From the NCBI GenBank assembly GCA_029937535.1, contig JAPYPT010000020.1, positions 1 through 32,585 on the forward strand: 32,585 nt of DNA, read 5' to 3'. This DNA is from Alphaproteobacteria bacterium. GTDB lineage: Bacteria; Pseudomonadota; Alphaproteobacteria; GCA-2731375. Below, piece by piece: positions 2,372 to 32,262 of the stretch (positions are counted from its first letter, which is position 1; each line of letters begins with the position of its first letter). The notes beneath the pieces were generated by a model. That model was not told the DNA's origin. It ran no database searches and worked only from the letters and a program-made list of their open reading frames with translations. Position numbers and translations under genes: made by a program.

Positions 2372-2426
2372 TCCGTGGCTCCTGTGTTTCCCGAGCCTAA
2401 TTATCCCACGTCCCAATCCGCGGCGC

Positions 2427-2468: not shown

Positions 2469-2527
2469 TTCCCCCCGGCCCCGGCCTCCGCTACCGTTGG
2501 CTAGGACATAATGGGGAAGGCAGGGCA

Positions 2528-3787: not shown

Positions 3788-3793
3788 GATGTC

Positions 3794-4078
3794 ATGGATT
3801 TAAAAGCCTTCAAGTCATCGTTGAGCAAGGATGCGCCGCCCGCGGGTCTTGGCACGGCCGTCCAGGCGTTGTGGCGGGTCGCCAATGATGAATGGGACGA
3901 GGCCCACAAGCTGGCCCAGGAGCAAGCCGATGCGGAAGGCGCCTGGGTGCACGCTCATCTGCACCGCGTCGAAGGGGATCTGCGGAACGCCGGCCACTGG
4001 TACGGCCGGGCAGGCAAGCCGGAAGCCACGACTGCCCTGGATGCCGAATGGGACGAAATTGCCACGGCGCTGCTGTAA
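3794..4078 (+). CDS. Small conserved hypothetical protein
   Basis: This is a 94-residue soluble, acidic, Trp-rich protein with no recognised domain. Ala-rich helices alternate with conserved-looking motifs: ALWRVANDEWDEAHKLAQ (25-42), GAWVHAHLHRVEGDLRNAGHWYGRAGK (49-75) and DAEWDEIATALL at the C-terminus. The helix-loop-helix pattern suggests a short TPR/SEL1-like helical repeat fold (inference). It starts 6 bases after the amidohydrolase stop, with AGGAT upstream, so it is probably translated from the same mRNA. Similar small proteins occur as hypotheticals in other alphaproteobacteria to my recollection; no function is known to me. Confidence 0.7.
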   Translation: MDLKAFKSSLSKDAPPAGLGTAVQALWRVANDEWDEAHKLAQEQADAEGAWVHAHLHRVEGDLRNAGHWYGRAGKPEATTALDAEWDEIATALL

Positions 4079-4093
4079 TTCCGGGTTTGGCGA

Positions 4094-8118: not shown

Positions 8119-8134
8119 TTGGTCCGCAACACTG

Positions 8135-8794: not shown

Positions 8795-8830
8795 GAAACC
8801 ACGCCGCGCTGATTGCCGGCCCCGGGGCCG

Positions 8831-9763
8831 CTATAGATCTTCGATAAAACGCACCATGCGCCGGCGTATCTTGGGCTCGGGCAGGCGGCCGCGCAGGGCC
8901 CCCATGTTCTCTTCCATGTGCGCCACCCGAGAGGTTGCCGGAATGGCGCAGGTGACGCTTGGATGGGAGATGATGAATTTCAAGAAGAACTGCGCCCAGT
9001 TCGAACAGTCGAATTCCTTGACCCAGCCAGGCAGCGGCTTGTCCCGTACCAAAGGAAACAGGCCGCCGCCCTGAAACGGCCGGTTGATGATCACGCCTAG
9101 CCCGCGCTCCCGCGCCAGGGGCAGCAGGCGCGCTTCGGCTTCCCGGTCCAGTATGTTGTAGGTGAATTGCACGAAATCCAGGGATTGAGCGGCCATGATC
9201 CGTTCCATTTCACTGTGCCGGCCGCCGTGGGACGTGGTGATGCCGATATAACGAATCCGGCCCTCCGCCTTGGCTTGGCGCAGGGTCTGCAAATGCGCCT
9301 CCCAATCCACCAGGTTGTGGATTTGCATGAGGTCGAAGCGGTCGACCGCCCAAAGCGCGGCGGCTTCCCGAATCTGGCTTTCCGCGCTGGTGCCATACGG
9401 GGTCCAGACCTTTGTGGCGGAAAACAGGCCTTGTTTATTCTCCAGCCGTTTCAGGCACCAGCCGATAACCTCTTGCGAACTGCCGTACATGGGCGAGCTG
9501 TCGATCATCCCGCCGCCCAATTCAAGAAATCTCCGCAGCACCGCCAGCCGCCGCCGGCGCAGCCTTTCACTACCGCCGACATTAAAGGTAATCCAGGTGC
9601 CCATGCCGAGGGCGGGGATTTCCTCTCCCGTCGCCGGGATCTTACGCCGGATCAAGGTGCCCGGTTTCGCCGCCGGGTCGGTGGAAAACAATGGTGTCAA
9701 TGAAGCGCCCAGCGCCGAAAACAGCAGCCGGCGGCGGTTGAATATCAACCGCTGGGTCTGCAT
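8831..9763 (-). CDS. Tat-exported aldo/keto reductase
   Basis: This 310-residue protein has an intact AKR catalytic tetrad: Asp88 and Tyr93 (MIDSSPMYGSS), Lys118 (SATKVW) and His149 (MQIHNL). The TIM-barrel order is kept, from GMGTW to the C-terminal AIPATSR segment that contacts NADP(H) phosphate in AKRs. The N-terminus, NRRRLLFSALGASLTPLF (9-26), is a twin-arginine signal-like sequence with a hydrophobic core, so periplasmic export via Tat is predicted. That would require the cofactor to be loaded in the cytoplasm. The carbonyl substrate is unknown. It lies in a minus-strand run behind the alpha/beta hydrolase and before DUF6064. Confidence 0.87.
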   Translation of the reverse strand: MQTQRLIFNRRRLLFSALGASLTPLFSTDPAAKPGTLIRRKIPATGEEIPALGMGTWITFNVGGSERLRRRRLAVLRRFLELGGGMIDSSPMYGSSQEVIGWCLKRLENKQGLFSATKVWTPYGTSAESQIREAAALWAVDRFDLMQIHNLVDWEAHLQTLRQAKAEGRIRYIGITTSHGGRHSEMERIMAAQSLDFVQFTYNILDREAEARLLPLARERGLGVIINRPFQGGGLFPLVRDKPLPGWVKEFDCSNWAQFFLKFIISHPSVTCAIPATSRVAHMEENMGALRGRLPEPKIRRRMVRFIEDL

Positions 9764-9806
9764 TGCCTTCGGTGCCGCCGTCTCACCGCATCATGTCTCC
9801 AACCCT

Positions 9807-10757
9807 TTAGGATAGTGCGTCGCGCAATCGTTTGGCGGCAAGACTTTGCGCGGCAATGGAATCGTCCAACATGGGCGCCATGGAAAAGAAGCCGTGGATC
9901 ATGCCCTCAAAATCCACGTGTTCGCAGGCCACGCCTTCGGCCACCAGCCGCTTGCCGCATTCCCGGCCCTCGTGGTTGAGGATATCGCATTCCGCCGTGA
10001 TCAACAGCACCGGCGGCAGGCCGGCAAAGCTGGCCGCGCGGGAGGGCGAGGCGCGCCAATCGGCCAATTCCTCGTCGCTGTTGAGATAGTGTTCCCGGAA
10101 ATAAGGTATCGAGTCCGCCACCAGGGGGCCATGGCCCTTGCCATAGGTCTCGTAGGTGGGCGTGCCGCCGGCATAATCCATCACGGGATAGACCAGCAAT
10201 TGAAAGGCGATGGATAAATCATCCGCGCTGTCGCGGGCCATGAGGGAGACGACAAGGGCCAGGTTGCCGCCCGCGCTGTCGCCGCCCACGGCGATTTTGT
10301 CGGCCCGGATGCCCATCTCATCGGCATTGTCCGAGAGCCACTTGGTGGCGGCATAGCTGTCATCGACGGAAGCGGGAAATTTTGCCTCCGGTCCCATGCG
10401 GTAATCCACGGAGAGGACGAAGATTCCGGCGTCCCGGCACATGGCGCGGGCGACGGAATCGTGGGTCTCGAGGCTGCCGATAACATGACCGCCACCATGG
10501 AAATAGACCAGGGCGCCCACCGCGCCGTCCGAGCCACCGGCGCCGGCGGGGCGGTAGGTGCGCACGGGAATATCGCCCATCGGTCCGGGAATGGTCCGGT
10601 CCTCGACCGCGCCGACCTCGACGATGGGCGCATTGCGGGCCTTCACGCCGGCTTCCATCTGCGCCCTGGCATCGACCGGGCTCAACTCGTGCATGGGCTT
10701 CAGGCCCAGGGCCTTCATGGCCTCCAACAGATCGAGCAATTGGGGTTTCATTGCCAT
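9807..10757 (-). CDS. Alpha/beta hydrolase of the hormone-sensitive-lipase (HSL) esterase family
   Basis: This 316-residue cytoplasmic esterase has the family oxyanion-hole motif HGGG (87-90). Its nucleophile is Ser161 in GGDSAGGN, its acid is Asp258 in AECDILNHEG and its base is His288 in GMIHGFF. The length is typical of bacterial HSL/group IV esterases. These hydrolyse short-chain esters or lactones; the physiological ester is not evident. The start at 10757 has GGAGGAA upstream on the minus strand; a second ATG two codons later is a less likely alternative. The spacing of 33 bases to the SDR gene upstream suggests co-transcription. Confidence 0.9.
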   Translation of the reverse strand: MAMKPQLLDLLEAMKALGLKPMHELSPVDARAQMEAGVKARNAPIVEVGAVEDRTIPGPMGDIPVRTYRPAGAGGSDGAVGALVYFHGGGHVIGSLETHDSVARAMCRDAGIFVLSVDYRMGPEAKFPASVDDSYAATKWLSDNADEMGIRADKIAVGGDSAGGNLALVVSLMARDSADDLSIAFQLLVYPVMDYAGGTPTYETYGKGHGPLVADSIPYFREHYLNSDEELADWRASPSRAASFAGLPPVLLITAECDILNHEGRECGKRLVAEGVACEHVDFEGMIHGFFSMAPMLDDSIAAQSLAAKRLRDALS

Positions 10758-10790
10758 GATTTCGTTTCCTCCATTTTTTCGACTGAAATT

Positions 10791-11552
10791 TTAATACTGC
10801 ACACTTGGGGTCAAGGCGCCATCGACCAACAGGTTGGCGCCGCTGATGAAGCTGGCCAGGGGACTGCACAAAAAGACCGTGGCATCCGCCACCTCTTCCG
10901 GCGTGCCCATGCGGCCCATGGGGTTCAGGCCCAGGGCGCCCTTATAGATTTCAGGCGTTTCCACTTCGCGCTGATGCCACACCCCACCCTCGAAATAGAT
11001 CGTGCCGGGCGAGACCGAATTAAAGCGCAAACCCTTGGACGCATGCGCGTGCGCCAGGTTGGAGATATGGTTGACCAGGGCCGCCTTCATGGTGTTGTAG
11101 GGCCGCACGCCGCCGAAAAACTGCAGCGCCCCGACCGAGTTGATGGCGACAACGGAACCGGCATCGGATTTCTCCAGATGGGGCAGGGCGCCGTCAATCG
11201 TGTGAATGGTGCCCATGATGTCGATCTCGAAGGCGGCGCGCCAATCTTCTTCCGTGTCCGTGGTTGCCATGGCCGATACATTGGCCACCAGCACATCCAG
11301 CCCGCCCAGTTCATCCGCCGCGCTGTCGATCCAGGCTTTCAGGGCGGTTTCATCGCCCACGTCCACGCCCCCGCCCGTGGCCCGCACGCCCATGCCTTGC
11401 AGGGCCGCGACCGTCTCCGCCACCGCCTCCGGATCGCGGGCGCATATCGCCACATCCGCGCCTTCCGTCGCCAGACGCTCCGCGATGGCCCGGCCGATGC
11501 CCCGGGTTCCGCCCGTCACCAGAGCCTTTTTGCCCCGTAATCCCAAATCCAT
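10791..11552 (-). CDS. SDR-family oxidoreductase (classical short-chain dehydrogenase)
   Basis: This 253-residue protein has the Rossmann motif TGGTRGIG (13-20), an NVSA version of the NNAG strand motif (91-94) and the catalytic residues Ser139, Tyr152 and Lys156 (YNTMK). The C-terminal SFISGANLLVDGAL is the usual end of FabG-like SDRs. It is an NAD(P)-dependent hydroxyl/keto oxidoreductase of unknown substrate. GGGGGAG precedes the ATG at 11552. The neighbours (zinc alcohol dehydrogenase upstream, HSL esterase downstream) suggest sequential ester and alcohol oxidation steps. Confidence 0.9.
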   Translation of the reverse strand: MDLGLRGKKALVTGGTRGIGRAIAERLATEGADVAICARDPEAVAETVAALQGMGVRATGGGVDVGDETALKAWIDSAADELGGLDVLVANVSAMATTDTEEDWRAAFEIDIMGTIHTIDGALPHLEKSDAGSVVAINSVGALQFFGGVRPYNTMKAALVNHISNLAHAHASKGLRFNSVSPGTIYFEGGVWHQREVETPEIYKGALGLNPMGRMGTPEEVADATVFLCSPLASFISGANLLVDGALTPSVQY

Positions 11553-20021: not shown

Positions 20022-21098
20022 ATGGCTTTGCATAGAGAGGAATTGCCGGCGGAAGTTCTCTCGCAACTGCGCCAGGGCGTGGTTATCCCGGCCCATCCCC
20101 TGGCCCTGACCGAAGCGCGGGCGTTGGATGAACGCCATCAGCGCGCCCTGACCCGGTATTACCTGGATGCGGGCGCGGGCGGTCTGGCGGTCGGCGTGCA
20201 TGCCACGCAGTTTGAAATTCGCGATGTCGGCCTGTACGAACCGGTGCTGCGCCTGGCAAAGGAAACCGCCACCGCCTGGACCGAGCGGACAACAATCATG
20301 ATCGCCGGCCTGGCGGGACCCACCAGCCAGGCCCTGGGGGAGGCGGACGTGGCGCTGGGCCTGGGCTATCACGCGGGCCTGTTGAGTCTGGCCGCCCACA
20401 AGGGCGCAAGCGAGGACGAACTGATCGCCCATTGTGGGGCGGTATCCGAACGCATTCCCTTGATCGGTTTTTATCTGCAGCCAGCAGTTGGCGGCATTGT
20501 TCTCTCGACCGAATTCTGGCGCCGCTTCGCCGCCCTCGACAACGTCATTGCCATCAAGGTGGCGCCGTTCAACCGCTATCGCACGCTGGATGTGATACGC
20601 GGCGTGGTCGCGGCGGAGGCGGAGGACCGGATCACTCTGTACACGGGCAACGATGATCATATTTTCCTCGATCTGTTGACGCCGTTCGCAGTGCGCCGGG
20701 GCGGGGAAGAGGTCGTGGTGCGTTTCCGGGGCGGGCTGTTGGGACATTGGAGCGTCTGGGTCAAGCCGGCCGTGGACTATCTGGCCCGGGCCCATGCCGC
20801 GGTTGCCGCAGGAGTGGTCGCGGCGGAGTTGCTGCAACTGGACAGCCAGATCACCGATGCCAACGGGGCGTTGTTCGATGTGGTCAACGATTTCGCCGGT
20901 TGTATTGCCGGTTGTCACGAGGTCCTGCGCCGGCAAGGCTTGTTGCAGGGCACCTGGTGCCTGAACCCGGACGAGGCCATGAGCCCCGGCCAGGCGGAGG
21001 AACTGGACCGCGTGATCGCCGACTACCCCCACCTGTGCGACGACGGCTTCGTGGCCGAGAATCTAGAGCGTTGGCTGGCTGGGAGTCCCCATGATTAG
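20022..21098 (+). CDS. Dihydrodipicolinate synthase/N-acetylneuraminate lyase (DapA) family protein
   Basis: This 358-residue TIM-barrel protein is slightly longer than DapA (about 290-300 aa). The Schiff-base lysine is probably Lys179 (VIAIKVAPFNRYRT). The tyrosine of the family's YNxP motif is probably Tyr151 (FYLQPAVGG). The opening segment, VVIPAHPLALTEARALDERHQRALTRYYLDAGAGGLAVGVH, follows the DapA beta-alpha order. Members perform aldol or retro-aldol reactions on pyruvate or 2-oxo acids. Not being a stand-alone lysine gene, it likely acts in the catabolic pathway. It starts 15 bases after the dioxygenase stop. Confidence 0.85.
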   Translation: MALHREELPAEVLSQLRQGVVIPAHPLALTEARALDERHQRALTRYYLDAGAGGLAVGVHATQFEIRDVGLYEPVLRLAKETATAWTERTTIMIAGLAGPTSQALGEADVALGLGYHAGLLSLAAHKGASEDELIAHCGAVSERIPLIGFYLQPAVGGIVLSTEFWRRFAALDNVIAIKVAPFNRYRTLDVIRGVVAAEAEDRITLYTGNDDHIFLDLLTPFAVRRGGEEVVVRFRGGLLGHWSVWVKPAVDYLARAHAAVAAGVVAAELLQLDSQITDANGALFDVVNDFAGCIAGCHEVLRRQGLLQGTWCLNPDEAMSPGQAEELDRVIADYPHLCDDGFVAENLERWLAGSPHD

Positions 21099-21189
21099 GG
21101 GTACACGTAACAAGTACATGTCCCCCTATTCACCCCCACCAATGGCACAGGCGGAGAATTTTGGGGACATGTACTTGTTACGTGTACCC
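21099..21189. repeat. Perfect 27-bp inverted repeat with 37-base loop (REP-like palindromic element)
   Basis: The arms at 21099-21125 and 21163-21189 are exact reverse complements over all 27 bases. The outer end of the left arm begins GGGTACACGTAAC; its inner end is TACATGTCCCC. The element starts directly after the TAG of the DapA-like gene and ends 37 bases before the ABC permease gene. The run of conserved G/C bases at both tips and the long stem recall extragenic palindromic elements moved by REP-associated (RAYT-type) transposases. No transposase gene lies nearby, so a non-autonomous element is likely. As RNA it would form a very stable hairpin able to attenuate or protect the mRNA. Confidence 0.7.
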
Positions 21190-21226
21190 AAATTTCGGGC
21201 CATCGCCGCCAATGGATTGACTGAAC

Positions 21227-21997
21227 ATGGATGACGGCCGCGATAAACTGCGTAAGTGGGTGTTGATCATCGTTATGCACCTAGCCGCCCTGGCCGCGTG
21301 GCAGGCCTGGATCACCCTGGGTGAGGTTGAGCCCTATATCATGCCGGCGCCTCTGGACACCTTCGCCACCTTGTTGGAATGGAAGACCTACGCCTGGGGC
21401 CATAACACTCTGATTACCGCCGCCTCGGTGTTCGGCGGCTTCTGGCTGGCGGTTGTGGTGGGGGTTGGCATGGCGGTGCTGTTTTCCTGGTCGCGCTGGC
21501 TGAATGATGCCCTGATGCCCTTGATCGTTTCCCTGAACATGATCCCCAAGGTGGCCCTGGGACCGATCTTTATCGTCTGGTTTTCCTATGGCCTGGGCCC
21601 GAATATCCTGATCGCCTTTTCCATCTGCTTTCTGCCGATCCTGATCACGACATCTCGGGGACTGGGCGAGGTGGAGCCGGAACTGATCGATCTGGTCCGT
21701 ACCCTGCGCGCTTCGCGCTGGCAGATCTTCACCAAGATCCAGTTGCCCGGCGCCCTGCCGTTCATTTTTTCCGGCATGAAGGTGGCCGTGGTGCTGGCGG
21801 TGGCGGGCGCCATCGTGGGTGAGTTCATCGCCTCGGAAGAAGGCCTCGGCTATTTGATGATGCAGGTGCAGGTGACCCTGGACACCGCCGGCATGTTCAT
21901 GGCCGTGCTGATGATTACCGCCGTGGGCGTCAGCCTGTACGCCATCGTCCTGCTGCTGGAACGCCTGCTGGTGGTCTCCGATGCGCGGATGGAATAG
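21227..21997 (+). CDS. ABC transporter permease (SsuC/TauC-like)
   Basis: This 256-residue inner-membrane protein has about six hydrophobic helices. The cytoplasmic EAA loop, which docks the ATPase, is visible at about residues 147-182: GEVEPELIDLVRTLRASRW followed by IFTKIQLPGALPFIF. Family members form the channel for sulfonate, taurine, nitrate or pyrimidine uptake. It is followed directly by the ATPase gene (stop TAG at 21995-21997, next ATG at 21998). Its partner is the binding protein at 17509-18501. The ribosome site upstream of 21227 is weak, and the inverted repeat may affect expression of this gene relative to the upstream ones. Confidence 0.9.
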   Translation: MDDGRDKLRKWVLIIVMHLAALAAWQAWITLGEVEPYIMPAPLDTFATLLEWKTYAWGHNTLITAASVFGGFWLAVVVGVGMAVLFSWSRWLNDALMPLIVSLNMIPKVALGPIFIVWFSYGLGPNILIAFSICFLPILITTSRGLGEVEPELIDLVRTLRASRWQIFTKIQLPGALPFIFSGMKVAVVLAVAGAIVGEFIASEEGLGYLMMQVQVTLDTAGMFMAVLMITAVGVSLYAIVLLLERLLVVSDARME

Positions 21998-22768
21998 ATG
22001 AGCGCCAACCCCGCATTCATCCAGCTCGACGGCGTGCGCAAGGTATATCGCGGCCGGCGGGCGGATTTTCTCGCCGTCTCCGATGTCACCTTCGATGTTT
22101 CATTGGGCGAACTGGTCTGCATGGTCGGGCCATCGGGCTGTGGCAAAACGACCGTGCTGAAGATCCTGGCCGGCTTGCATTCCCACGAGGATGGCACGGT
22201 CCGCATCGGCTCGAATGCCGAAAAATTCGACCCCGCCCGTGATATCGGCATGGTCTTCCAACAGCCCCTGCTGTTGAAATGGCGCCGGGTCATCGACAAC
22301 GTCTTGCTGCCGGCCGAAATTCTGGGCCTGAACATGGCCGAGGCACGGGACCGGGCCGGGCATCTGCTGGAGATGGTCGGCCTCACCGGTTTCGCGGAGA
22401 GCTATCCCTATGAATTGTCGGGCGGCATGCAGCAGCGCGCCGCCATCGCCCGCGCCCTGGTGCATGATCCGAAATTGATCCTGATGGACGAACCCTTCGG
22501 GGCCCTGGACGCCTTGACGCGGGAAAAAATGAACCTGGAGTTGCTGCGCATCTGGAGCGAGAGCGGCAAGACCATCGTCTTCGTGACCCACGGCATACAG
22601 GAGGCCGTGTTCCTGGGCAGCCGGGTGGTTGTGCTGACGGCGGGCCCCGCCCGCATGGCTGATAATTTTTTGGTCGATCTGCCGTATCCGCGGACCCTGG
22701 ACATGAAAACACAGGAAGCCTTCGGCGATTACACCCGCCGGATCTATAAATTATTGGGAATGGAGTGA
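21998..22768 (+). CDS. ABC transporter ATP-binding protein (SsuB/TauB-like)
   Basis: This 256-residue ATPase has Walker A GPSGCGKT (44-51), a Q-loop around Gln88-Gln89 (MVFQQP), the ABC signature LSGGMQQR (140-147), Walker B LILMDEP (160-166) followed by the D-loop GALDALTR, and an H-loop His in VFVTHGI. It energises uptake through the adjacent permease. Abutting genes make equal expression with the permease likely. The last region (about 205-256) is short, as in the nitrate/sulfonate importer group, without an added regulatory domain. Confidence 0.93.
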   Translation: MSANPAFIQLDGVRKVYRGRRADFLAVSDVTFDVSLGELVCMVGPSGCGKTTVLKILAGLHSHEDGTVRIGSNAEKFDPARDIGMVFQQPLLLKWRRVIDNVLLPAEILGLNMAEARDRAGHLLEMVGLTGFAESYPYELSGGMQQRAAIARALVHDPKLILMDEPFGALDALTREKMNLELLRIWSESGKTIVFVTHGIQEAVFLGSRVVVLTAGPARMADNFLVDLPYPRTLDMKTQEAFGDYTRRIYKLLGME

Positions 22769-22787
22769 GTATGAGCGAGAAACGCCA

Positions 22788-23939
22788 ATGACCGAAAAAA
22801 GACTCGGCATCATCATGAACGGCGTCACCGGGCGCATGGGCAAGAACCAGCATCTGATCCGCTCGATCCTGGAAATCATGAACGCGGGCGGCCTGGAGCT
22901 GGCCGACGGCAGCCGCGTCATGCCGGATCCGATCCTGGTGGGGCGGGATGCGGGCCGGGTCGGCGCCTTGGCGCGGGCGCATGGCCTAAGCCGGTGGACC
23001 TCCGATCTGGACGCGGCAATGGCCAACCCCGACGACACGCTGTTTTTCGATGCCGCCACCACCCAGGCCCGCGCCGGGCTGCTGACAAAGGCGATCGAGG
23101 CCGGCAAGGACATCTATTGCGAAAAACCAACCTCCGACAGCCTGGCCGATGCCTATGGCGTTTATCAAAAGGCCAAGGCCGCCGGCATCAAACATGGCGT
23201 GGTGCAGGATAAATTGTTTCTGCCGGGGATCGGCAAACTGAAATACCTGATCGACGCCGGTTTCTTCGGCCGCATTCTTTCGGTGCGGGGCGAGTTCGGT
23301 TATTGGGTCTTCGACGGTGATTTGCAGCCCGCCCAACGCCCGTCCTGGAATTACAAAAAAAGCGAGGGCGGCGGCATTATCCTCGATATGCTGTGCCATT
23401 GGCGCTATGTGCTGGACAACACCTTTGGCGCCGTGAAATCGGTCAGTTGTCTGGGCGCCACCCACATCCCCAAACGCTGGGACGAGAACGATGCGGCCTA
23501 CGAGGCGGACGTGGACGATGCCGCCTATGCCACCTTCCAGCTTGAAGGCGGGATCGTGGCGCATTTCAATTCTTCATGGGCCACTCGTGTGCGCCGGGAC
23601 GATTTATTGACCCTGCATGTGGACGGCACCCATGGTTCCGCCGTGGCCGGCCTGCGCCGCTGCCGCAGCCAGGCCCTGGTCAACACGCCGACGCCGGTCT
23701 GGAACCCCGACATTCCCCCCGCCATCGATTACCAGGATGGCTGGGAGGAGGTGCCCGACCCGGTCCCCTACGACAATGCCTTCAAGGCGCAGTGGGAATT
23801 GTTCATCCGTCATCTTTACGGCGACGGGCCCTTTCCCTGGGATCTTCTGGCTGGCGCCCGCGGCGTGCAATTGGCGGAGTTGGGTTTGCAAAGCTGGGCC
23901 GAGCGGCGCTGGATGGATATTCCCGATTTGGAGGCCTAG
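22788..23939 (+). CDS. Gfo/Idh/MocA-family NAD(P)-dependent oxidoreductase
   Basis: This 383-residue protein has a dinucleotide-binding opening (LGIIMNGVTGRMGKNQHL, 6-23), in which the usual GxGxxG is degenerate as NGVTGRMG. The family EKP motif is at 112-114 (DIYCEKPTSDS). The C-terminal substrate domain begins near residue 140, with GGGIILDMLCHWRYVLD around 198-214, where members carry the active-site Asp/His pair. Family members oxidise or reduce cyclic polyols, sugars and sugar acids. It follows the ABC ATPase with a 19-base gap. A seven-codon reading frame starting ATGAGC at 22771 lies in the gap and is probably not meaningful. Confidence 0.88.
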   Translation: MTEKRLGIIMNGVTGRMGKNQHLIRSILEIMNAGGLELADGSRVMPDPILVGRDAGRVGALARAHGLSRWTSDLDAAMANPDDTLFFDAATTQARAGLLTKAIEAGKDIYCEKPTSDSLADAYGVYQKAKAAGIKHGVVQDKLFLPGIGKLKYLIDAGFFGRILSVRGEFGYWVFDGDLQPAQRPSWNYKKSEGGGIILDMLCHWRYVLDNTFGAVKSVSCLGATHIPKRWDENDAAYEADVDDAAYATFQLEGGIVAHFNSSWATRVRRDDLLTLHVDGTHGSAVAGLRRCRSQALVNTPTPVWNPDIPPAIDYQDGWEEVPDPVPYDNAFKAQWELFIRHLYGDGPFPWDLLAGARGVQLAELGLQSWAERRWMDIPDLEA

Positions 23940-23941
23940 GC

Positions 23942-25108
23942 ATGGCGACCCTGAACCTGCCAGTTGGCAATGGTCGACTGGAATCCTTCTCCACCAGCAC
24001 GCCGAGAGATTTCCCAGCCCGCGCCAACCGCCCCTTCAACCGCATCGCCTATTCGGCCGCCCACGTGGTGGCGGATCCCTTGTCGGACGCCGATCCCTGG
24101 CTGGAGGCGGCGATCGATTGGGATGCCACCATCGCCTACCGCGCCAAGCTCTATGATCTCGGGCTCGGCGTGGCGGAGGCCATGGATACGGCCCAGCGCG
24201 GCATGGGGCTGGACTGGGCCGCCAGTCAGACCTTGATCCGCCGCAGTCTGGAGGCCGCCCGCCATATCCCCGGCGCCCGTATCGCCTGTGGCGCCGGTAC
24301 GGATCATTTGGAACCGTCGGCGGATCTGCGGCTCGATGACGTGATCCGCGCTTATGAGGAACAGGTCGAATTCGTCGAAGAGAAAGGCGGACGCATCATC
24401 CTGATGGCTAGCCGGGCGCTCGCCGCCTGCGCCACCTCTCCCGACGACTACGCCTTGGTCTATGACCGTATCTTGAGTCAGGTTCGCGAGCCGGTCCTGA
24501 TCCATTGGCTGGGCGAGATGTTCGACCCGGCCCTGGCCGGTTACTGGGGCCATGACGATCACATGGCGGCCATGGATGTCTGCCTCGATATGCTGGCCGC
24601 CAACGCCAACCAGATCGACGGCATCAAGATCTCGCTGTTGGACAAGGACAAGGAAATTGCCATGCGCCGGCGTCTGCCCGCGGACGTGGCGATGTACACC
24701 GGCGATGATTTCAACTACGCCGAACTGATCGCCGGCGACGAGATGGGCTATTCCCATGCCCTGTTGGGTATTTTCGACGCCATCGCGCCCGCCGCCTCCG
24801 CCGCCCTGGATGCCTTCGCGGGCGGAGACGAGGCGCGCTTTCACGACATTCTGGCCCCCACCGTGCCGCTCTCCCGCCACATCTTCCGCGCCCCCACCCG
24901 GTTCTACAAAACCGGCGTGGTCTTCATGGCCTGGCTGAATGGCCATCAGGACCATTTCGTCATGGTCGGCGGCCAGCAAAGCGCCCGATCCCTCGCCCAT
25001 TTGGCCGAACTTTTCCGCCTGGCCGATGCCGCCGGCCTGCTGGCTGATCCGGATTTGGCCAGTAACCGCATGGGAGCATTGTTGGCCACTCAGGGCGTCA
25101 CGGATTAG
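23942..25108 (+). CDS. DUF993-family TIM-barrel protein
   Basis: This protein has 388 residues from the ATG at 23942, two bases after the dehydrogenase stop; the frame is open further upstream but overlaps that gene. It is recognisable as DUF993, a distant relative of the DapA/aldolase superfamily: FNRIAYSAAHVVADPLSD (32-49), ACGAGTDHLEP (115-125), EPVLIHWLGEMFDPALAGYWG (183-203) and IDGIKISLLDKDKE (225-238), where Lys229 stands where a DapA-type Schiff-base Lys would be. The enzyme activity of the family is not established. The co-located Gfo/Idh/MocA and sugar isomerase genes suggest aldol cleavage or lyase chemistry on a keto-sugar (inference). Confidence 0.86.
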   Translation: MATLNLPVGNGRLESFSTSTPRDFPARANRPFNRIAYSAAHVVADPLSDADPWLEAAIDWDATIAYRAKLYDLGLGVAEAMDTAQRGMGLDWAASQTLIRRSLEAARHIPGARIACGAGTDHLEPSADLRLDDVIRAYEEQVEFVEEKGGRIILMASRALAACATSPDDYALVYDRILSQVREPVLIHWLGEMFDPALAGYWGHDDHMAAMDVCLDMLAANANQIDGIKISLLDKDKEIAMRRRLPADVAMYTGDDFNYAELIAGDEMGYSHALLGIFDAIAPAASAALDAFAGGDEARFHDILAPTVPLSRHIFRAPTRFYKTGVVFMAWLNGHQDHFVMVGGQQSARSLAHLAELFRLADAAGLLADPDLASNRMGALLATQGVTD

Positions 25109-25127
25109 GCACCTGTTCCCAATTGAT

Positions 25128-25568
25128 ATGGATACGTTAACGCCAAAACAACGAAGCGAGCGAATGGGCCGCGTTAGGAGCAAGAACACGAAGCCCGAAA
25201 TTGCGGTTCGTCGATTGATACACGGCATGGGTCTGCGGTACCGCCTCCATCGTCGAGACTTGCCTGGGTCTCCGGATTTGGTGTTTTCGTCTCGCCAAAA
25301 AGTCATCTTCGTCCATGGTTGCTTTTGGCATCGTCACCAGAATTGCAAACTGGCCCGCCTACCCAAGACTCGAACTGAATTCTGGTTGCCGAAACTGGAG
25401 GGAAACAGAATACGCGACATCGACAATCAAAAACGATTGTCCGGTCTCGGCTGGGAATACCTAGTTGTCTGGGAATGCCAAGTGCGAGACACTAAAAAAC
25501 TGAAAGATCTGATTCGCGGGTTCCTATTAGGCGAAAGGGTAGTATTTTCCGATGTTGAAGACGGTTGA
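25128..25568 (+). CDS. vsr: Very-short-patch repair endonuclease
   Basis: This protein has 146 residues from the ATG at 25128. The open frame extends upstream into DUF993, but this ATG gives the standard Vsr N-terminus, MDTLTPKQRSERMGRVRSKNTKPE. The catalytic Asp is Asp50 (LPGSPDLVF), and the Zn and active-site histidines lie in FVHGCFWHRH (61-70) with Cys73 following. Vsr nicks 5' of the T in T:G mismatches produced by deamination of 5-methylcytosine. Linkage to a C5-methyltransferase is therefore expected. The end overlaps the methyltransferase start by 17 bases. Base composition is more A/T-rich than the flanking genes. Confidence 0.94.
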   Translation: MDTLTPKQRSERMGRVRSKNTKPEIAVRRLIHGMGLRYRLHRRDLPGSPDLVFSSRQKVIFVHGCFWHRHQNCKLARLPKTRTEFWLPKLEGNRIRDIDNQKRLSGLGWEYLVVWECQVRDTKKLKDLIRGFLLGERVVFSDVEDG

Positions 25569-26775
25569 ATTGTTCGCTGGGGCAGGCGGCCTTGGCATGG
25601 GATTGAGCCTTGCTGGATTTGAAGCATGCGCGGTCGTGGAGTGGGATCGATGGGCATGCGACACGATGAACGAAAATCGACGGCGCGATTTCCCCTTATT
25701 GCGGAACTGGCCAATTACCCATGGGGATGTCCGAGATTTTAGCTATGAATCACTGGAAGATAAAATTGATTTGGTCGCTGGCGGACCGCCCTGCCAACCT
25801 TTCTCCATGGGCGGCAAGCACCGCGGCTTCGAAGATAATCGTGATATGTTTCCCGCCACGGTCGATGCGATCCGGCGCCTTCGGCCAAAGGCTTTCATTG
25901 TCGAGAATGTGAAGGGTCTGACGCGAACCGCGTTTGAAAATTATTTTCAGTATATTTTACTTCAATTGACTTTTCCCGAACTTCGGCGCCGGGGAAATGA
26001 AGACTGGCTTGCGCATTTGGGTAGATTGGAACGTACCAAGACGTCCAACAAACGAAGTGGCCTAACCTATAAATTGGTACACAGAGTGCTAAACGCCGCC
26101 GACCATGGCGTGCCTCAAAAACGTGAGCGGGTATTTATCGTCGGTTTTCGAAGTGATATCGGTGCAAAATGGTCGTTTCCCGAACCGACGCATAGCCTGG
26201 ATGCCTTGCTTGAAGATCAGTGGGTTGGGGGAGAGTATTGGGACCGGCATGAAATTTCCAAGCGAGCCCGACCGGCGATGCCGGATCGATACGAAAAACG
26301 AATTGAAAATTTGAAAAAGTCAAACTTTCGTCCCATGTTGGACTCCAAACCTTGGCGGACCGTTCGGGACGCCTTGATTGGGCTACCGAACCCGGAAACC
26401 GGTGAAGGCGATGGTGAACTGTTCAATCATCGTTTTCAGGCGGGCGCACGGCCATACGTTGGCCATACGGGCAGTCCCATGGATTTGCCGGCGAAAGCCT
26501 TAAAGGCGGGAGATCATGGCGTGCCAGGCGGCGAAAACATGCTCGTTAAGATCGATGGTCAGGTCCGTTATTTCACTGTTCGCGAAGCGGCGAGGCTTCA
26601 GACATTTCCAGATGGCTACCTTTTTCATGGATCGTGGAGCGAAACCATGCGTCAACTTGGGAATGCCGTCCCGGTTCGTCTGGCCCATGTGATAGCCAGT
26701 AGTGTCGGTGTGGAACTTGCACGCCATGATGAACGGGAGCTGAAACGCCTGGCAAAACGTTTGGCACCGACATGA
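25552..26775 (+). CDS. DNA (cytosine-5)-methyltransferase of a type II R-M system
   Basis: This 407-residue protein has all major C5-MTase motifs: motif I VELFAGAGGLGMGLSLAGFE (5-24), motif IV GGPPCQPFSMGG with catalytic Cys81, motif VI FIVENVKG with Glu118, motif VIII QKRERVFIVGF, motif IX around RPYVGHTGSPMDLPAKAL, and motif X TVREAARLQTFPDGY then QLGNAVPVRLA. It is the modification partner of the adjacent GIY-YIG endonuclease and overlaps it by 4 bases (ATGA at 26772). If the endonuclease is Eco29kI-like, the target is CCGCGG (inference). Sampled lines inside the gene have 38-52% GC by hand count, against about 60% nearby. Confidence 0.93.
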   Translation: MLKTVELFAGAGGLGMGLSLAGFEACAVVEWDRWACDTMNENRRRDFPLLRNWPITHGDVRDFSYESLEDKIDLVAGGPPCQPFSMGGKHRGFEDNRDMFPATVDAIRRLRPKAFIVENVKGLTRTAFENYFQYILLQLTFPELRRRGNEDWLAHLGRLERTKTSNKRSGLTYKLVHRVLNAADHGVPQKRERVFIVGFRSDIGAKWSFPEPTHSLDALLEDQWVGGEYWDRHEISKRARPAMPDRYEKRIENLKKSNFRPMLDSKPWRTVRDALIGLPNPETGEGDGELFNHRFQAGARPYVGHTGSPMDLPAKALKAGDHGVPGGENMLVKIDGQVRYFTVREAARLQTFPDGYLFHGSWSETMRQLGNAVPVRLAHVIASSVGVELARHDERELKRLAKRLAPT

Positions 26776-27386
26776 GTGAACCCGAGGTTTTCAACCCTCT
26801 GGACAAACGCAATTTGGGTGAAAGCGTATCGGATGCCTTGCTGCGTGGGCAGGCACGGCCAATGGGCGAGTTGGATAGCTTTATTGGCGCCGGAATCTAT
26901 GTGATCTATTATTCGGGTGCGTTTGATCCATATTTACCTATCTCGGAACGCAACCAAGGCGACGCCTTTGAAATGCTTTTATATGTCGGGAAGGCCGTTC
27001 CGCCTGGCGCGCGAAAAGGCGGCTTTGGTCTCGACGCGGACCCAGGCAATGCTCTGAGCTCACGGCTGCGTCAGCATGCGGCAAGCATTGATCAAACAAG
27101 CAACCTGAATATCGAGGATTTCGATTGTCGTTTTCTCGTGGTTGAAGATATTTGGATCCCGTTGGGTGAAAATCTACTCATCACGAAATTTGGGCCGATC
27201 TGGAATAGACTTATTGACGGATTTGGAAATCACGATCCGGGCAGCGGTCGATATAATCAAGTTCGCTCAAGATGGGATGTGCTCCATCCTGGACGGCCAT
27301 GGGCGGAACGACTACGAGATAGACCGGAGAGCGCGGAGCAAATTTCGAGAGAACTGAAAACATACCTCCGAGACTTGTTGCGATGA
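26772..27386 (+). CDS. Eco29kI-family GIY-YIG restriction endonuclease
   Basis: This 204-residue protein opens with FNPLDKRNLGESVSDALL (7-24), the recognised start of the Eco29kI family. The GIY strand is GAGIYVIYYSG (39-49) and the YVGK strand is LLYVGKAVP (69-77). A catalytic Arg/His pair lies in LSSRLRQHAAS (95-105), and the metal-binding Glu is in GENLLITKFGPIWN (132-145). Members cut CCGCGG as a dimer, and its own methyltransferase protects that sequence. No separate control (C) protein gene is seen, so regulation probably relies on gene order and coupling to the methyltransferase. Base composition is A/T-richer than the genes downstream. Confidence 0.88.
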   Translation: MSEPEVFNPLDKRNLGESVSDALLRGQARPMGELDSFIGAGIYVIYYSGAFDPYLPISERNQGDAFEMLLYVGKAVPPGARKGGFGLDADPGNALSSRLRQHAASIDQTSNLNIEDFDCRFLVVEDIWIPLGENLLITKFGPIWNRLIDGFGNHDPGSGRYNQVRSRWDVLHPGRPWAERLRDRPESAEQISRELKTYLRDLLR

Positions 27387-27419: not shown

Positions 27420-28439
27420 GTGGTGAATCCAACAATCCTGCAAATAGGCTTTGGCAATTTTGGGCCGACCCACCTGGCGGCCTGGCGTTCGTTGGGATTG
27501 GCGGATGGCTTGCTTGTGGTCGATCCGGAGTTGGCGGCACGGCGGCGTTGTTTGGACTTGGGGCTGCCCGAAAGCCGTGTCGGGGGGGATGTCGCGGAAT
27601 TTCTTGATCGGGCGGATTTGGTGGTCGTGCTGGCGCCCACCGACCGGCACTTCGAAGTTTGCCAACCGCTGCTGGCGGCGGGCAAGCACCTGTTTATTGA
27701 AAAGCCCATGACCGCGACCCTGGCCGAGGCCGAGGGACTGCGTGATCTGGTTAAGGATCAAGTGGTGCAGGTGGGATTTTATTTCCGCGCTCATCCCCTG
27801 GCGAAACTGGCCAAGGCGGAGGTTGATGCGGGGCATCTGGGCGATCTACGCTACATCTCGGCAAGGTTTCATGGTTACAAGCGGGCCCGTGGCGACAGCG
27901 GCGTGGTGGGCAATGACGCGGTGCATTTCATCGATCAGGCGAACTGGATGATGGGCGCGCTGCCTGTTGCCGTGGACGCGGTGACGCGGGATCATTTCGG
28001 CCGGGGCTATGACGATCTGGCCCTGATCCGGCTGTTCTATCCCTCTGGCGCCCTGGCCCATATCGAAGTTGGGTGTATTCAACCCGGGCGCTGGAATGAC
28101 AATATCGTGCCCGGCGCCACGCAGACCAAGGAATTCATGGTGGCGGGCAGTGAAGGTGCCGCGGAGATCGATTATCAAACCAGCGAATTGCGCCTGCATC
28201 GGGTCCGTCACGAATTGACGGACGGGCTATGGCGGCCCGACAACCGGGGCGTCGAAATGCCCCATGCCGCCGTGGTCGAGCCGCACGATGTCGTGGCGGC
28301 GGAATTCAGCGCCTTTCTTGAGGCGGTGGATGGTAAGGCGCCGCCCCTGGCGGGCATGGAGGAATGCGGCGTCGGCATGGCGCGAATTCTCGATGCTATT
28401 CACCGCTCGGCGGAACGGGAACAAAGGATCGCGTTGTGA
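27420..28439 (+). CDS. Second Gfo/Idh/MocA-family oxidoreductase
   Basis: This protein has about 339 residues from GTG at 27420. The alternatives are GTG at 27423 and TTG at 27393, and none has a clear ribosome site. The Rossmann motif is ILQIGFGNFGPTHLAAW, and the EKP motif is in HLFIEKPMTATL. The substrate domain contains GVVGNDAVHFIDQANWMMG with the family Asp/His pair. It is a sugar or polyol dehydrogenase/reductase, not a close copy of the first one at 22788. It begins right after the restriction gene, which may have displaced its original translation signals. The next gene overlaps its stop by four bases. Confidence 0.85.
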   Translation: MVNPTILQIGFGNFGPTHLAAWRSLGLADGLLVVDPELAARRRCLDLGLPESRVGGDVAEFLDRADLVVVLAPTDRHFEVCQPLLAAGKHLFIEKPMTATLAEAEGLRDLVKDQVVQVGFYFRAHPLAKLAKAEVDAGHLGDLRYISARFHGYKRARGDSGVVGNDAVHFIDQANWMMGALPVAVDAVTRDHFGRGYDDLALIRLFYPSGALAHIEVGCIQPGRWNDNIVPGATQTKEFMVAGSEGAAEIDYQTSELRLHRVRHELTDGLWRPDNRGVEMPHAAVVEPHDVVAAEFSAFLEAVDGKAPPLAGMEECGVGMARILDAIHRSAEREQRIAL

Positions 28440-29266
28440 AATTCGCCTTATGTAACGAAGTGATCGCGGACATGAGCTTCGCCGCGCAATGCGACTTTGC
28501 CGCCGCCCTGGGCTATGACGGCCTGGAGGTGGCGCCCTTTACCCTGTCGGATGAGCCGCACGAGGGGGGCGCTGTTGATATCGTCGCCACGCGGCGGGCC
28601 GCACGGGATGCCGGCGTTGAAATCGTTTCCCTGCACTGGCTGCTTGTCGCGCCTTCCGGTTTGTCGATCACCGATCCCGACGATGATACCAGGGCGCGCA
28701 CGGTGGATGTGATGCGCCGCCTGATCGGCCTTTGCGGCGAATTGGGCGGCACGGCTCTGGTGCATGGCTCACCCCTGCAGCGGCGCTTGACCCCTGGCGA
28801 TGAAGATGGCGCCCGGCAACGGGCCATCGATTGTTTCGCTGCTGTCGCCGACGACGCCAAGGCCGCCGGTGTCACCTATTGTATTGAGGCATTGGCGCCC
28901 GAGGATGCGGAATTCATCAACCGCATCGCTGAGGCTGCGGCCATGGTCGACACCATTGGCAGTCCCCATATCCGCACCATGCTCGATTGCTGCGCCACGG
29001 CGCGGCTGGATGAAGACAGCCCCGCCGAACTGATCGAGCGTTGGCTGCCCAGCGGCCATTTGGCCCATGTCCAGGTCAACGACGGCAACGGCCGGGGACC
29101 GGGGCAGGGCGCGATGGCCTTTGCGCCCATCCTGTCGGCCTTGCAACGGCACGGCTATGACGGCACGGTGGCGGTGGAACCATTTGACTATTATCCCGAC
29201 GGCCACGCGGCGGCGGCCCGCGCCATCGGCTATTTACGCGGTATAGAGGAGGCCTTGCGTGACTGA
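28436..29266 (+). CDS. Sugar phosphate isomerase/epimerase family (AP_endonuc_2 TIM barrel), copy 1
   Basis: This protein has 276 residues from the GTG at 28436, chosen because AAGGA lies 7 bases upstream and the codon overlaps the previous stop as GTGA. The xylose-isomerase-like TIM barrel is seen in GYDGLEVAPFTL (about 23-34), VEIVSLHWLL, GGTALVHGSPLQRRL, VTYCIEALAPEDAEF with the metal Glu, IRTMLDCCATAR, LAHVQVNDGNGRGPGQGAM and GTVAVEPFDYYPDG. The metal-ligand pattern of Glu/Asp/His/Glu on successive strands fits inosose isomerase (IolI/IolE)-like enzymes that interconvert keto-sugars or polyols. Confidence 0.88.
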   Translation: MKFALCNEVIADMSFAAQCDFAAALGYDGLEVAPFTLSDEPHEGGAVDIVATRRAARDAGVEIVSLHWLLVAPSGLSITDPDDDTRARTVDVMRRLIGLCGELGGTALVHGSPLQRRLTPGDEDGARQRAIDCFAAVADDAKAAGVTYCIEALAPEDAEFINRIAEAAAMVDTIGSPHIRTMLDCCATARLDEDSPAELIERWLPSGHLAHVQVNDGNGRGPGQGAMAFAPILSALQRHGYDGTVAVEPFDYYPDGHAAAARAIGYLRGIEEALRD

Positions 29267-30638
29267 TCCCATAAAGCTTTCCGTCCAAGAGGTGCAACTG
29301 TTCGAGCGTGACGTGACCCTGCGCATGCCCTTCCGCTTTGGCGTTGTCACGCTGCGGGAAAGCCCCCAGGTCTTTGCCAGGGTGCGGATACGGCTGGATG
29401 ATGGCCGGGAAGGCTGGGGACTATCGGCCGAGATGCTGGCGCCGAAATGGTTCGACAAGAATTTGGAGCTCAGCAACGAAGACAACTTCGATCAATTGCG
29501 CCTGGCACTTGCCACCGCCACCGGCCTTTATCGTGACGCCGCGCCCGCCACGGCCTTCGGGCTGTTCCGCTCCAACTATGATGAGCAGATCCGTATTTGC
29601 GGCGAACGGGGGGATAACTCCCTGGTCGCCAACTATGGCCCGGCGGTGCTGGACCGCGCGGTTCTCGATGCGCTCTGCCGCCTGCACGAAGTTTCGTTCT
29701 ACACAGCGATCCAGGGCAATCTGCCGGGTATCGAAAGCGATGAATATGACATGGACCGGTTCCTGGCGGGATTGCGCCCGGCGGCACGCATCCATGCCCG
29801 CCATACGGTGGGCATGGTCGATCCGATCCGGGAGAACCCCGAGCCCGTGGGTGACGGTCTGCCCGAAACCCTGCAAGAGGTCATCGCGGCCTATGGCCAT
29901 CGGTATTTCAAGATCAAGGTCTGCGGTGATTTGGACGAGGACGTGGCGCGGCTGGTGGAAATTGCCGATGTGCTGGATGAGCGCCAGGATGACTACATCA
30001 TCTCTCTCGACGGCAACGAACAATATAACGACGTCGCCGGTGTGTCCGCCCTGCTGGACGGGATCGAAGGCGACGAGCGGTTGAAGCGCTTCAATGATGC
30101 CATCCTGTTCGTGGAACAGCCCATTTCCCGCGCCGTGGCCTTGGACGTTGATGTCAGCCTGCTCAGCGCCCGCAAGCCTGTGATCCTGGATGAGGCCGAT
30201 GGCTTCCTGGGCGCCTTTCCCAGAGGCCGGGAACTTGGCTATCGCGGCGTTTCCTCGAAGACCTGCAAGGGCTTCTACAAATCAATCCTGAACCGGGGAC
30301 GCTGCGCCCACTGGGGCGAGGGCTATTTCATGTCGGGGGAGGATTTGACGACCCAGGCCGGCATCTCCGTGCAGCAGGATCTGGCCCTGGTCAATCTGCT
30401 TGGCATCACGCATGTGGAGCGCAACGGCCATCACTACGTCAACGGGATGTCGGGCGTGCCGGAGGCCGAGCAGGCCGCTTTCCGCGGCGCCCATCCGGAT
30501 ATGTACCACCTTGCCGACGGCGTCACCCGGCTGGCTATCACGGACGGTGAGATCGCCATTGGCTCGTTGGACGCGGTTGGTTTTGCGTATGGCGCGGAGC
30601 CGGATTTCACGGCCATGCGGGAGGCCGGACATGGCTGA
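29259..30638 (+). CDS. Enolase-superfamily (mandelate racemase/muconate lactonizing-like) dehydratase
   Basis: This 459-residue protein starts with GTG at 29259 (AGAGGAGG upstream), overlapping the previous stop by 8 bases. Superfamily residues are visible: the base pair Lys218/Lys220 (YFKIKVCGDLD), metal ligands Asp251 (SLDGNEQY), Glu286 (FVEQP) and Asp311/Glu312 (VILDEADG), and Lys334 (VSSKTCKG) on the final strand. It is 60-100 residues longer than typical mandelate racemase members, with an extended N-terminal part. It may dehydrate a sugar acid to a 2-keto-3-deoxy acid, feeding the aldolase at 31480. It is cytoplasmic, and the substrate is unknown. Confidence 0.84.
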   Translation: MTDPIKLSVQEVQLFERDVTLRMPFRFGVVTLRESPQVFARVRIRLDDGREGWGLSAEMLAPKWFDKNLELSNEDNFDQLRLALATATGLYRDAAPATAFGLFRSNYDEQIRICGERGDNSLVANYGPAVLDRAVLDALCRLHEVSFYTAIQGNLPGIESDEYDMDRFLAGLRPAARIHARHTVGMVDPIRENPEPVGDGLPETLQEVIAAYGHRYFKIKVCGDLDEDVARLVEIADVLDERQDDYIISLDGNEQYNDVAGVSALLDGIEGDERLKRFNDAILFVEQPISRAVALDVDVSLLSARKPVILDEADGFLGAFPRGRELGYRGVSSKTCKGFYKSILNRGRCAHWGEGYFMSGEDLTTQAGISVQQDLALVNLLGITHVERNGHHYVNGMSGVPEAEQAAFRGAHPDMYHLADGVTRLAITDGEIAIGSLDAVGFAYGAEPDFTAMREAGHG

Positions 30639-31452
30639 TCTGGCGCGGCTGTCGATTAATCAGGCCACCACGCGGGAACAACACAGCCTGGCCCAGGCGA
30701 TCGCGGCCTATGCCGGGGCCGGCGTTACCGGTATCTCGATCTGGCGGGACAAGCTGGCCGACTGCGGTCTGGGGGAAGCGGCCGCCATGCTCAAGGACCA
30801 TGGGCTGCGGGTTTCGGGCCTGTGCCGTGCCGGGCAGTTCCCGGCATCGGATGCAGCCGAACGTCAGGCCCGGCTCGATGATAACAGGTTGGCGGTGGAT
30901 CAGGCCGTAGCCCTGGGGGCCGAATGCCTGATCGTCGTTGCCGGCGGCCTGCCGGAAGGTTCAAGGGACCTGCCCGGCGCCCGAGCAATGATCCGCGACG
31001 GCCTGGGCGCGGTGATGGACCATGCCCGCGCCGCCCAAATGCCCGTCGCCATCGAACCCCTGCATCCCATGTATGCCGCCGATCGGTGCGCTATCAATAC
31101 AATGAGCCAGGCGCTGGATCTTTGCGACGAACTGGGGCCGGGCCTTGGCGTTGCGGTGGATGTCTATCATGTCTGGTGGGACCCCGATTTGCAGGCCCAG
31201 ATCGAACGCGCCGGCGATCGCGTGCTGGCCTATCACGTCTGCGATTGGCTGGTTCCGACCACGGATTTATTGCTGGATCGCGGCATGATGGGCGACGGTG
31301 TCATCGATATACCGCAAATCAGCGAGTGGGTTGACGGCACCGGCTATAATGGGCTGATAGAAGTAGAAATCTTCTCGGCCGAGAATTGGTGGAAACGGCC
31401 CGCCGACGAAGTGATCCGCACCTGCCGGGAACGCATGTTATCATCTGTATAA
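30631..31452 (+). CDS. Sugar phosphate isomerase/epimerase family (AP_endonuc_2 TIM barrel), copy 2
   Basis: This protein has 273 residues from the ATG at 30631, which overlaps the enolase-like stop by 8 bases. The barrel is seen in GVTGISIWRDKL, LRVSGLCRAGQFP, CLIVVAGGLPEGSRDL, PVAIEPLHPMYAADRCAINT (metal Glu and substrate His), LGVAVDVYHVWWDP (metal Asp and His), VLAYHVCDWLVPTTDLLLDRGMMGDGVIDI, and LIEVEIFSAENWW (final metal Glu). The HVWWDP and RGMMGDGVID motifs are classical for IolE/hydroxypyruvate isomerase-like sugar isomerases. It is clearly different in sequence from copy 1, suggesting a separate step in the pathway. Confidence 0.9.
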   Translation: MADLARLSINQATTREQHSLAQAIAAYAGAGVTGISIWRDKLADCGLGEAAAMLKDHGLRVSGLCRAGQFPASDAAERQARLDDNRLAVDQAVALGAECLIVVAGGLPEGSRDLPGARAMIRDGLGAVMDHARAAQMPVAIEPLHPMYAADRCAINTMSQALDLCDELGPGLGVAVDVYHVWWDPDLQAQIERAGDRVLAYHVCDWLVPTTDLLLDRGMMGDGVIDIPQISEWVDGTGYNGLIEVEIFSAENWWKRPADEVIRTCRERMLSSV

Positions 31453-31479
31453 ATAACTGAATTTTGGGGAGGACGCCGC

Positions 31480-32262
31480 ATGGCTGTCATCGAGAATGTT
31501 ACCAAGCAGAAACTGGCGGCGGGCGAATTGTCCCTCGGCCTCGGCGTGCGTATCGCGCGCGGGGTGGAGATTGCCAAGGTGGCCAAGGTGTGCGGCTATG
31601 ACTGGCTGTTCATCGATATGGAGCACAGCCCCCTCTCCCTGGAGACCGTGGCGGATATCAGCCTGGCCGGATTGGATGCGGGTTGCACGCCCATCGTCAG
31701 GGCCTCGTCCCATCTGCACCACCATGCCAGCCGGCCCCTGGATGCGGGCGCGCAAGGCGTTGTGGTGCCGCATGTCAATTCGGCGGAGGAGGCGCGGCGC
31801 GTGGTCGATCAATGTCTCTATCCGCCCATCGGTCACCGCTCTCTCGCGGGCGGCGCGGCGATCCTGGAATATGAGAGCCTGCCCATGGCCGAGGCCACGA
31901 AGGTGATCAATAAAAATTTGCTGGTTGTGGTCATGCTGGAAAGTCCGGAGGCCATCGCCAACGCCGATGAAATTGCCGCCGTCGAAGGCGTCGATGTGTT
32001 GTTGATCGGCACCAACGATCTATGTGCCGAGATGGGTATCTCCGGGCAGTATGACCATGATGACGTGGTCGCCGCCTATGACGCGACTGTTTCGGCCTGC
32101 CGCAATAACGGCAAATGGGCCGGCATGGGCGGTATCTATGATGATCTGGCGGCGAAGTATATCAAGATGGGCGTACGCATGGTTCTGGGCGGCAGTGATC
32201 TGTCCTATCTGATGGCTGCCGCGAAGGGCAGGGCGGGGGCCCTGCACGGCATCGATTTATAA
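31480..32262 (+). CDS. HpcH/HpaI-type class II aldolase (2-keto-3-deoxy acid aldolase)
   Basis: This 260-residue protein has GGAGG 8 bases before the ATG. The HpcH/HpaI family residues are visible: general base His49 (FIDMEHSPLS), Arg74 (IVRASSH), metal Glu154 (VVMLESPEAI) and Asp180 (IGTNDLCAEMG). Members cleave 2-keto-3-deoxy-aldonates or 4-hydroxy-2-ketoacids to pyruvate plus an aldehyde, with a divalent metal. The length agrees with the family. It is the last enzyme of the catabolic run, consistent with the terminal carbon-splitting step (inference). Confidence 0.9.
   Translation: MAVIENVTKQKLAAGELSLGLGVRIARGVEIAKVAKVCGYDWLFIDMEHSPLSLETVADISLAGLDAGCTPIVRASSHLHHHASRPLDAGAQGVVVPHVNSAEEARRVVDQCLYPPIGHRSLAGGAAILEYESLPMAEATKVINKNLLVVVMLESPEAIANADEIAAVEGVDVLLIGTNDLCAEMGISGQYDHDDVVAAYDATVSACRNNGKWAGMGGIYDDLAAKYIKMGVRMVLGGSDLSYLMAAAKGRAGALHGIDL

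What the first reader, a model, noticed from the sequence alone, without database searches (positions are those of the whole stretch)
25128..27386. Vsr / C5-methyltransferase / Eco29kI-like restriction cassette inserted inside a catabolic operon
Three genes (vsr, MTase and GIY-YIG endonuclease) overlap or touch and interrupt the same-strand run between DUF993 and the second Gfo/Idh/MocA gene. Their base composition is visibly lower: sampled 60-base lines at 26281, 27181 and 25741 are about 38%, 43% and 52% GC, against 60% at 24541 in DUF993. It sits almost scarless (19 bases upstream, 33 bases downstream) with no integrase or transposase. Such insertion into a metabolic operon suggests recent transfer and may make the downstream catabolic genes depend on readthrough from the defence genes.
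Basis: partly seen in the sequence, partly recalled or inferred. Interest (0 to 1): 0.65.

Follow-up and report, generated by a model that had tools for sequence, protein, structure and literature searches.

The report
Eco29kI-like restriction cassette inside catabolic operon
A complete three-gene bacterial DNA-defence cassette (a mismatch-repair nick enzyme, a DNA methylase and a restriction enzyme) has been dropped cleanly between two genes of a nutrient-breakdown operon; the insertion is real and can be dated by comparison with relatives, but it is old rather than recent and of a kind already known.

Summary
Window 25128-27386 encodes an intact vsr, a C5-cytosine methyltransferase and an Eco29kI-type GIY-YIG endonuclease, overlapping head to tail, at 51-53% GC (GC3 about 0.5) inside a same-strand catabolic operon of 61-65% GC. 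The insertion is real: in nine congeneric genomes DUF993 is followed directly by the same Gfo/Idh/MocA gene, with only 9-40 nt between. "Recent transfer" is not supported. A second species, G008, carries the cassette at the same junction with spacers of identical length (19 and 36 nt). Cassette synonymous divergence between the two species is at least that of the flanking operon genes, while the proteins are conserved. So the cassette most likely entered before these species split and has been under purifying selection. In G008 a deletion of about 1 kb fuses the methylase start to the endonuclease end and removes essential residues of both. The same vsr-M-R unit occurs in many phyla, in a P2-like Burkholderia phage and beside an integrase on a plasmid. 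In a gammaproteobacterium it sits bare between thiE and hemL, which adjoin in relatives. Verdict: an ordinary, well-resolved case of a bare type II R-M cassette acquired by an operon.

The parts
23942..25108 (+). DUF993 gene, upstream flank of the insertion (operon member)
   Evidence: PF06187 E 1.4e-187; orthologues of 84-90% identity in the ten congeneric genomes
25109..25127 (+). left junction spacer, 19 nt; same length in G008
25128..25568 (+). vsr, very-short-patch repair mismatch endonuclease (146 aa)
   Evidence: TIGR00632 142.2 bits; E 1.5e-30 to E. coli Vsr 1cw0, with the PD, HGCFWH and RD motifs kept
25552..26775 (+). C5-cytosine DNA methyltransferase (407 aa), motifs I, IV (PCQ), VI (ENV), VIII (QKRER) and X present
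   Evidence: PF00145; HhaI/HaeIII MTase matches; PADLOC MTase_II PDLC03307 E 9.8e-127
26772..27386 (+). Eco29kI-type GIY-YIG restriction endonuclease (204 aa), equivalents of Y49, Y76, R104, H108, E142 and N154 at Y43, Y71, R98, H102, E133 and N145
   Evidence: PF09517; alignment to 3mx4/3nic; catalytic residues from PMC1952068
27387..27422 (+). right junction spacer, 36 nt; same length in G008
27423..28439 (+). second Gfo/Idh/MocA gene, downstream flank; GTG start where relatives mostly have ATG
   Evidence: PF01408; directly follows DUF993 in nine relatives
20022..23939 (+). upstream operon: DHDPS-like, ABC permease, ABC ATPase, first Gfo/Idh/MocA
   Evidence: order conserved in relatives
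28436..32262 (+). downstream operon: xylose-isomerase-like, enolase-superfamily, xylose-isomerase-like, HpcH/HpaI aldolase
   Evidence: order mostly conserved in relatives

Best explanation
This is a complete type II restriction-modification cassette of the Eco29kI kind, in the order vsr-M-R. It inserted once, without its own recombinase and without disrupting either flanking gene, into the short gap between DUF993 and a Gfo/Idh/MocA gene. This happened in an ancestor shared by the host and a sister species. Inferred mechanism: the methylase makes 5-methylcytosine in the site that the GIY-YIG endonuclease would cut (CCGCGG if specificity is as in Eco29kI); the endonuclease cuts unmethylated incoming DNA; Vsr nicks at T:G mismatches that arise when the 5-methylcytosines deaminate. 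The genes are probably read on the operon transcript, with translation coupled through overlapping stops and starts. Shown: gene identities, catalytic residues, empty sites, the shared junction, age and purifying selection. Inferred: activity, site specificity, co-transcription, and the delivery vehicle (temperate phage, plasmid or transformation).
For: Families and intact catalytic residues. Empty site in nine congeneric genomes and no other copy of M or R in the 15 family genomes. Same junction in G008 with spacers of equal length and residual similarity (25 of 55 nt; shuffle p 0.0003). Cassette divergence G000-G008: dN 0.05-0.11, pS 0.53-0.68, against flank pS 0.34-0.56. Same vsr-M-R order in about 13 other genomes of several phyla, in Burkholderia phage Milagro and beside an integrase on a Paraburkholderia plasmid. 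Second bare insertion between thiE and hemL in locus L047, with the two genes adjacent in 18 relatives.
Against: G002, sister to G000 on gyrA (100/98), lacks the cassette, so a loss or local recombination is needed; upstream operon genes instead pair G000 with G008 (95/94). CCGCGG is not rarer in G000 (536/Mb) than in G002 (520/Mb) or G008 (473/Mb), so there is no genomic footprint of activity on that site. MTase and REase pS exceed that of the flanks, which leaves room for two separate acquisitions.
Confidence: 0.85

Rival explanations
1. Recent horizontal transfer into this species only.
For: Low GC and GC3 against the operon; absent from most of the genus and from sister species G002.
Against: G008 has it at the same junction with equal spacer lengths and cassette divergence no lower than that of the flanks; low GC is equally present in G008 and in homologues in other GC-rich genomes.
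Confidence: 0.07
2. Two independent insertions of related cassettes at the same operon gap in G000 and G008, the gap acting as a small integration hotspot.
For: MTase and REase pS (0.67-0.68) exceeds flank pS; G002 on gyrA is closer to G000 yet empty; other modules occupy this gap in other genera, DHOD-like plus Fe-S protein ORFs in G011 and tripartite-transporter-like ORFs in G014.
Against: Identical spacer lengths on both sides with residual similarity (p 0.0003); cassette nt identity (0.80-0.81) is in the range of neighbours such as GFO2 and enolase (0.805); higher pS is expected where GC3 is not constrained.
Confidence: 0.1
3. Metagenome assembly or binning artefact joining an R-M contig to the operon.
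For: G000 is fragmented (534 contigs); G008's contig is titled as a metagenome-assembled genome (L056).
Against: Two separately assembled genomes show the same joint with diverged sequence on both sides; all flanking genes are in conserved order.
Confidence: 0.02
4. Ancestral operon component of the genus lost many times.
For: None beyond its presence in two species.
Against: Nine empty congeners and absence in other genera of the family would require many precise losses.
Confidence: 0.02

Closest known systems
Eco29kI restriction-modification system (E. coli plasmid pECO29; CCGCGG)
   Same: REase is of the same Pfam family (PF09517), about 40% identical to the E. coli plasmid copies over residues 17-199, with all six active-site residues kept; a C5 MTase is adjacent
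   Different: Order is vsr-M-R here, whereas R precedes M in the 40-45% identical homologues found here; carries vsr; chromosomal, inside an operon
vsr-M-Eco29kI module of Burkholderia phage Milagro (OM638609.1)
   Same: Same three genes, same order, overlapping ends; REase 59% identical
   Different: Carried as phage cargo near a tyrosine integrase, not bare in an operon
vsr-M-R module of the Paraburkholderia aromaticivorans plasmid (NZ_CP051517.1)
   Same: Same three genes, same order, overlapping ends; REase 59% identical
   Different: Next to a site-specific integrase and other defence-like genes
Bare chromosomal R-M systems in small acquired regions (Oliveira et al. 2014, PMC4176335)
   Same: A complete R-M system in a small acquired region with no mobile element around it
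   Different: Here the empty site and the second occupied species allow the event to be placed relative to speciation

Membership tests
Eco29kI-family type II restriction endonuclease | PF09517 profile match and the six GIY-YIG catalytic residues | tested here: met
   E 5.6e-67; residues aligned to 3mx4 and compared with PMC1952068
Eco29kI-family type II restriction endonuclease | Cleaves CCGCGG | not testable with these tools
   No extra depletion of CCGCGG in G000 compared with empty relatives, so indirect evidence is neutral
C5-cytosine DNA methyltransferase | PF00145 match with motifs I, IV, VI, VIII and X | tested here: met
Vsr mismatch endonuclease | TIGR00632 above cutoff with the E. 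coli Vsr motif residues | tested here: met
Type II R-M system | Adjacent M and R genes, both intact | tested here: met
   Intact and overlapping in the window; not intact in G008
Recently transferred gene cassette | Present in one species only, or much less diverged than its flanks | tested here: not met
Mobile element with its own recombinase | Integrase or transposase, terminal repeats, target duplication | tested here: not met
   No such genes or terminal repeats; the junctions are too diverged to see a short target duplication

The most novel reading that the evidence does not exclude
The vsr-M-R unit has a preference for entering the tiny gaps between genes of native operons, by an unrecognised recombinase-free route, so that a host metabolic promoter comes to drive it. 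Two independent resolved cases (this window and thiE/hemL in L047) are compatible, but most other copies examined lie between genes on differing strands, which argues against a general preference.
Probability: 0.08. Interest if true: 0.6.

Novelty: new member of a known kind. Interest (0 to 1): 0.3.

Why it matters
How complete R-M systems move when they are rarely on recognisable mobile elements is an open point raised in PMC4176335. This locus gives a clean resolved example with empty site, shared occupied site, purifying selection and a decayed sister copy, plus a second independent case at thiE/hemL. It also shows that low GC is not a clock for R-M cassettes. The general phenomenon is known, so the weight is modest.

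Tried and rejected
Recency from low GC: rejected, because homologues are GC-poor in other GC-rich hosts and in G008. Footprint by CCGCGG avoidance: no difference from empty relatives; CCGCGG is tenth most depleted of 64 palindromes in a 241-kb sample of G000, not exceptional. Terminal repeats at the cassette ends: none. A general preference for operon gaps: ORF layouts around ten homologous cassettes show mixed neighbour strands; only L047 is clearly inside a same-strand run. Promoter and terminator scan: counts at chance level. Furuta et al. 2010 on mobile R-M forms is not held.

Full report
What is there. The window carries, on the + strand, vsr (25128-25568), a C5-cytosine methyltransferase (25552-26775) and an Eco29kI-type endonuclease (26772-27386). 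Profile matches are well above curated cutoffs. The endonuclease aligns to the solved R.Eco29kI chains. The positions matching Y49, Y76, R104, H108, E142 and N154 are Tyr, Tyr, Arg, His, Glu and Asn (numbering assumes a 21-residue offset of the crystallised chain, which places every named residue correctly except E142, where the chain shown has Gln). Mutagenesis of five of these (not Y76) showed a catalytic role in R.Eco29kI (PMC1952068). The methylase shows motifs I, IV, VI, VIII and X in its sequence and aligns to M.HhaI and M.HaeIII. Vsr aligns to E. coli Vsr with its core motifs. All three reading frames are intact.

The surroundings. The cassette lies in a same-strand run of DHDPS-like, ABC permease, ABC ATPase, Gfo/Idh/MocA, DUF993 | cassette | Gfo/Idh/MocA, two xylose-isomerase-like proteins, enolase-superfamily and HpcH/HpaI aldolase genes. 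Gaps are 19 nt upstream and 36 nt downstream to the start that relatives support. GC is 0.51-0.53 (GC3 0.50-0.53) against 0.61-0.65 (GC3 0.70-0.83) in neighbours.

The empty site. All ten other genomes of the genus have DUF993. In nine of them (G001-G007, G009, G010; G007's contig starts inside DUF993) the next gene is the same Gfo/Idh/MocA gene after 9-40 nt. No other copy of this methylase or endonuclease was found in the 15 genomes of the family; only distant C5 methylases turned up in G000 and G003. In two other genera the same gap holds other modules: in G011 two ORFs that I read from sequence as DHOD-like and Fe-S protein genes, and in G014 ORFs that resemble a tripartite transporter (not profile-tested).

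Age. G008 carries the cassette at the same junction. Its spacers have the same lengths, 19 and 36 nt, with 25 of 55 positions identical, which shuffles reach with p 0.0003. Codon-aligned comparison of G000 and G008 gives pS 0.53 (vsr), 0.67 (M) and 0.68 (R), against 0.34-0.56 for the flanking operon genes, and dN 0.05-0.11. So the cassette has been diverging at least as long as the operon and has been under purifying selection. A gyrA tree puts G002, which is empty, next to G000 (100/98), with G008 outside. The operon genes upstream of the cassette pair G000 with G008 (95/94), and the DUF993+GFO2 tree and the downstream tree are unresolved. The three lineages split almost together. G002's empty site can be explained by loss, by recombination with an empty allele, or by the local gene tree.

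Decay in G008. There a deletion joins methylase residue 166 to endonuclease residue 92 in frame. By comparison with the window about 1 kb is missing. The product lacks methylase motifs VIII-X and the target-recognition region, and both tyrosines of the endonuclease active site (the Y49A mutant of R.Eco29kI has no activity), so the system is most likely dead in that genome. Losing methylase and endonuclease function together avoids self-restriction (inference). An assembly collapse at this point is not excluded.

Wider distribution. Of 53 GTDB loci with a related endonuclease, about 13 have vsr directly upstream of M and R in the same order, in several phyla; the more distant homologues with R before M have no vsr. 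The same module is cargo in Burkholderia phage Milagro and lies beside a site-specific integrase on a Paraburkholderia plasmid; a Halomonas phage has M-R without an annotated vsr. These are plausible vehicles. In locus L047 (a gammaproteobacterium) the module sits with no mobile gene between thiE and hemL, at 0.45 GC against 0.65; the two genes adjoin in 18 relatives. That is a second, independent bare insertion. Other copies lie between genes of mixed orientation, so no general preference for operon gaps is claimed.

How it probably works. Standard type II R-M action with Vsr guarding against the mutational cost of 5-methylcytosine. Specificity CCGCGG is inferred from family only. The genome gives no support by site avoidance: 536 sites/Mb in G000, 520 in empty G002, 473 in G008. 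Transcription from the operon promoter is inferred from spacing and lack of terminators above chance.

Verdict. Recency is rejected. The kind is known: complete R-M systems often sit in small acquired regions without recognisable mobile elements (PMC4176335). Interest is modest.

Noticed in passing
genomes G009 and G005 (sister species of the same genus): GGCGCC occurs only 1524 and 1433 times, against 7300-11500 in congeners: about five- to six-fold depletion, suggesting a long-lived restriction system with that site in this lineage.
   Followed up: no
L033 (G000:C85) 1714-4348: A second vsr (60% identical) divergent from a second C5 methylase, with a convergent 383-aa ORF without Pfam or PADLOC match that could be its endonuclease.
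   Followed up: partly
window 28436-29266: The xylose-isomerase-like gene after GFO2 is intact in G000, G002, G005, G009 and G010 but missing or truncated at the same place in G001, G003, G004, G006, G007 and G008.
   Followed up: no
L047 4289-6695: Bare vsr-M-R cassette between thiE and hemL in a gammaproteobacterium; a GAGG ribosome-binding-like site before hemL is kept and relatives show an empty site.
   Followed up: yes
G003: rpoB matches two places, one of them in three pieces, and the genome is listed at 7% contamination; its rpoB copy L098 is only 79% identical to that of G000, so it is probably foreign sequence in the bin.
   Followed up: no
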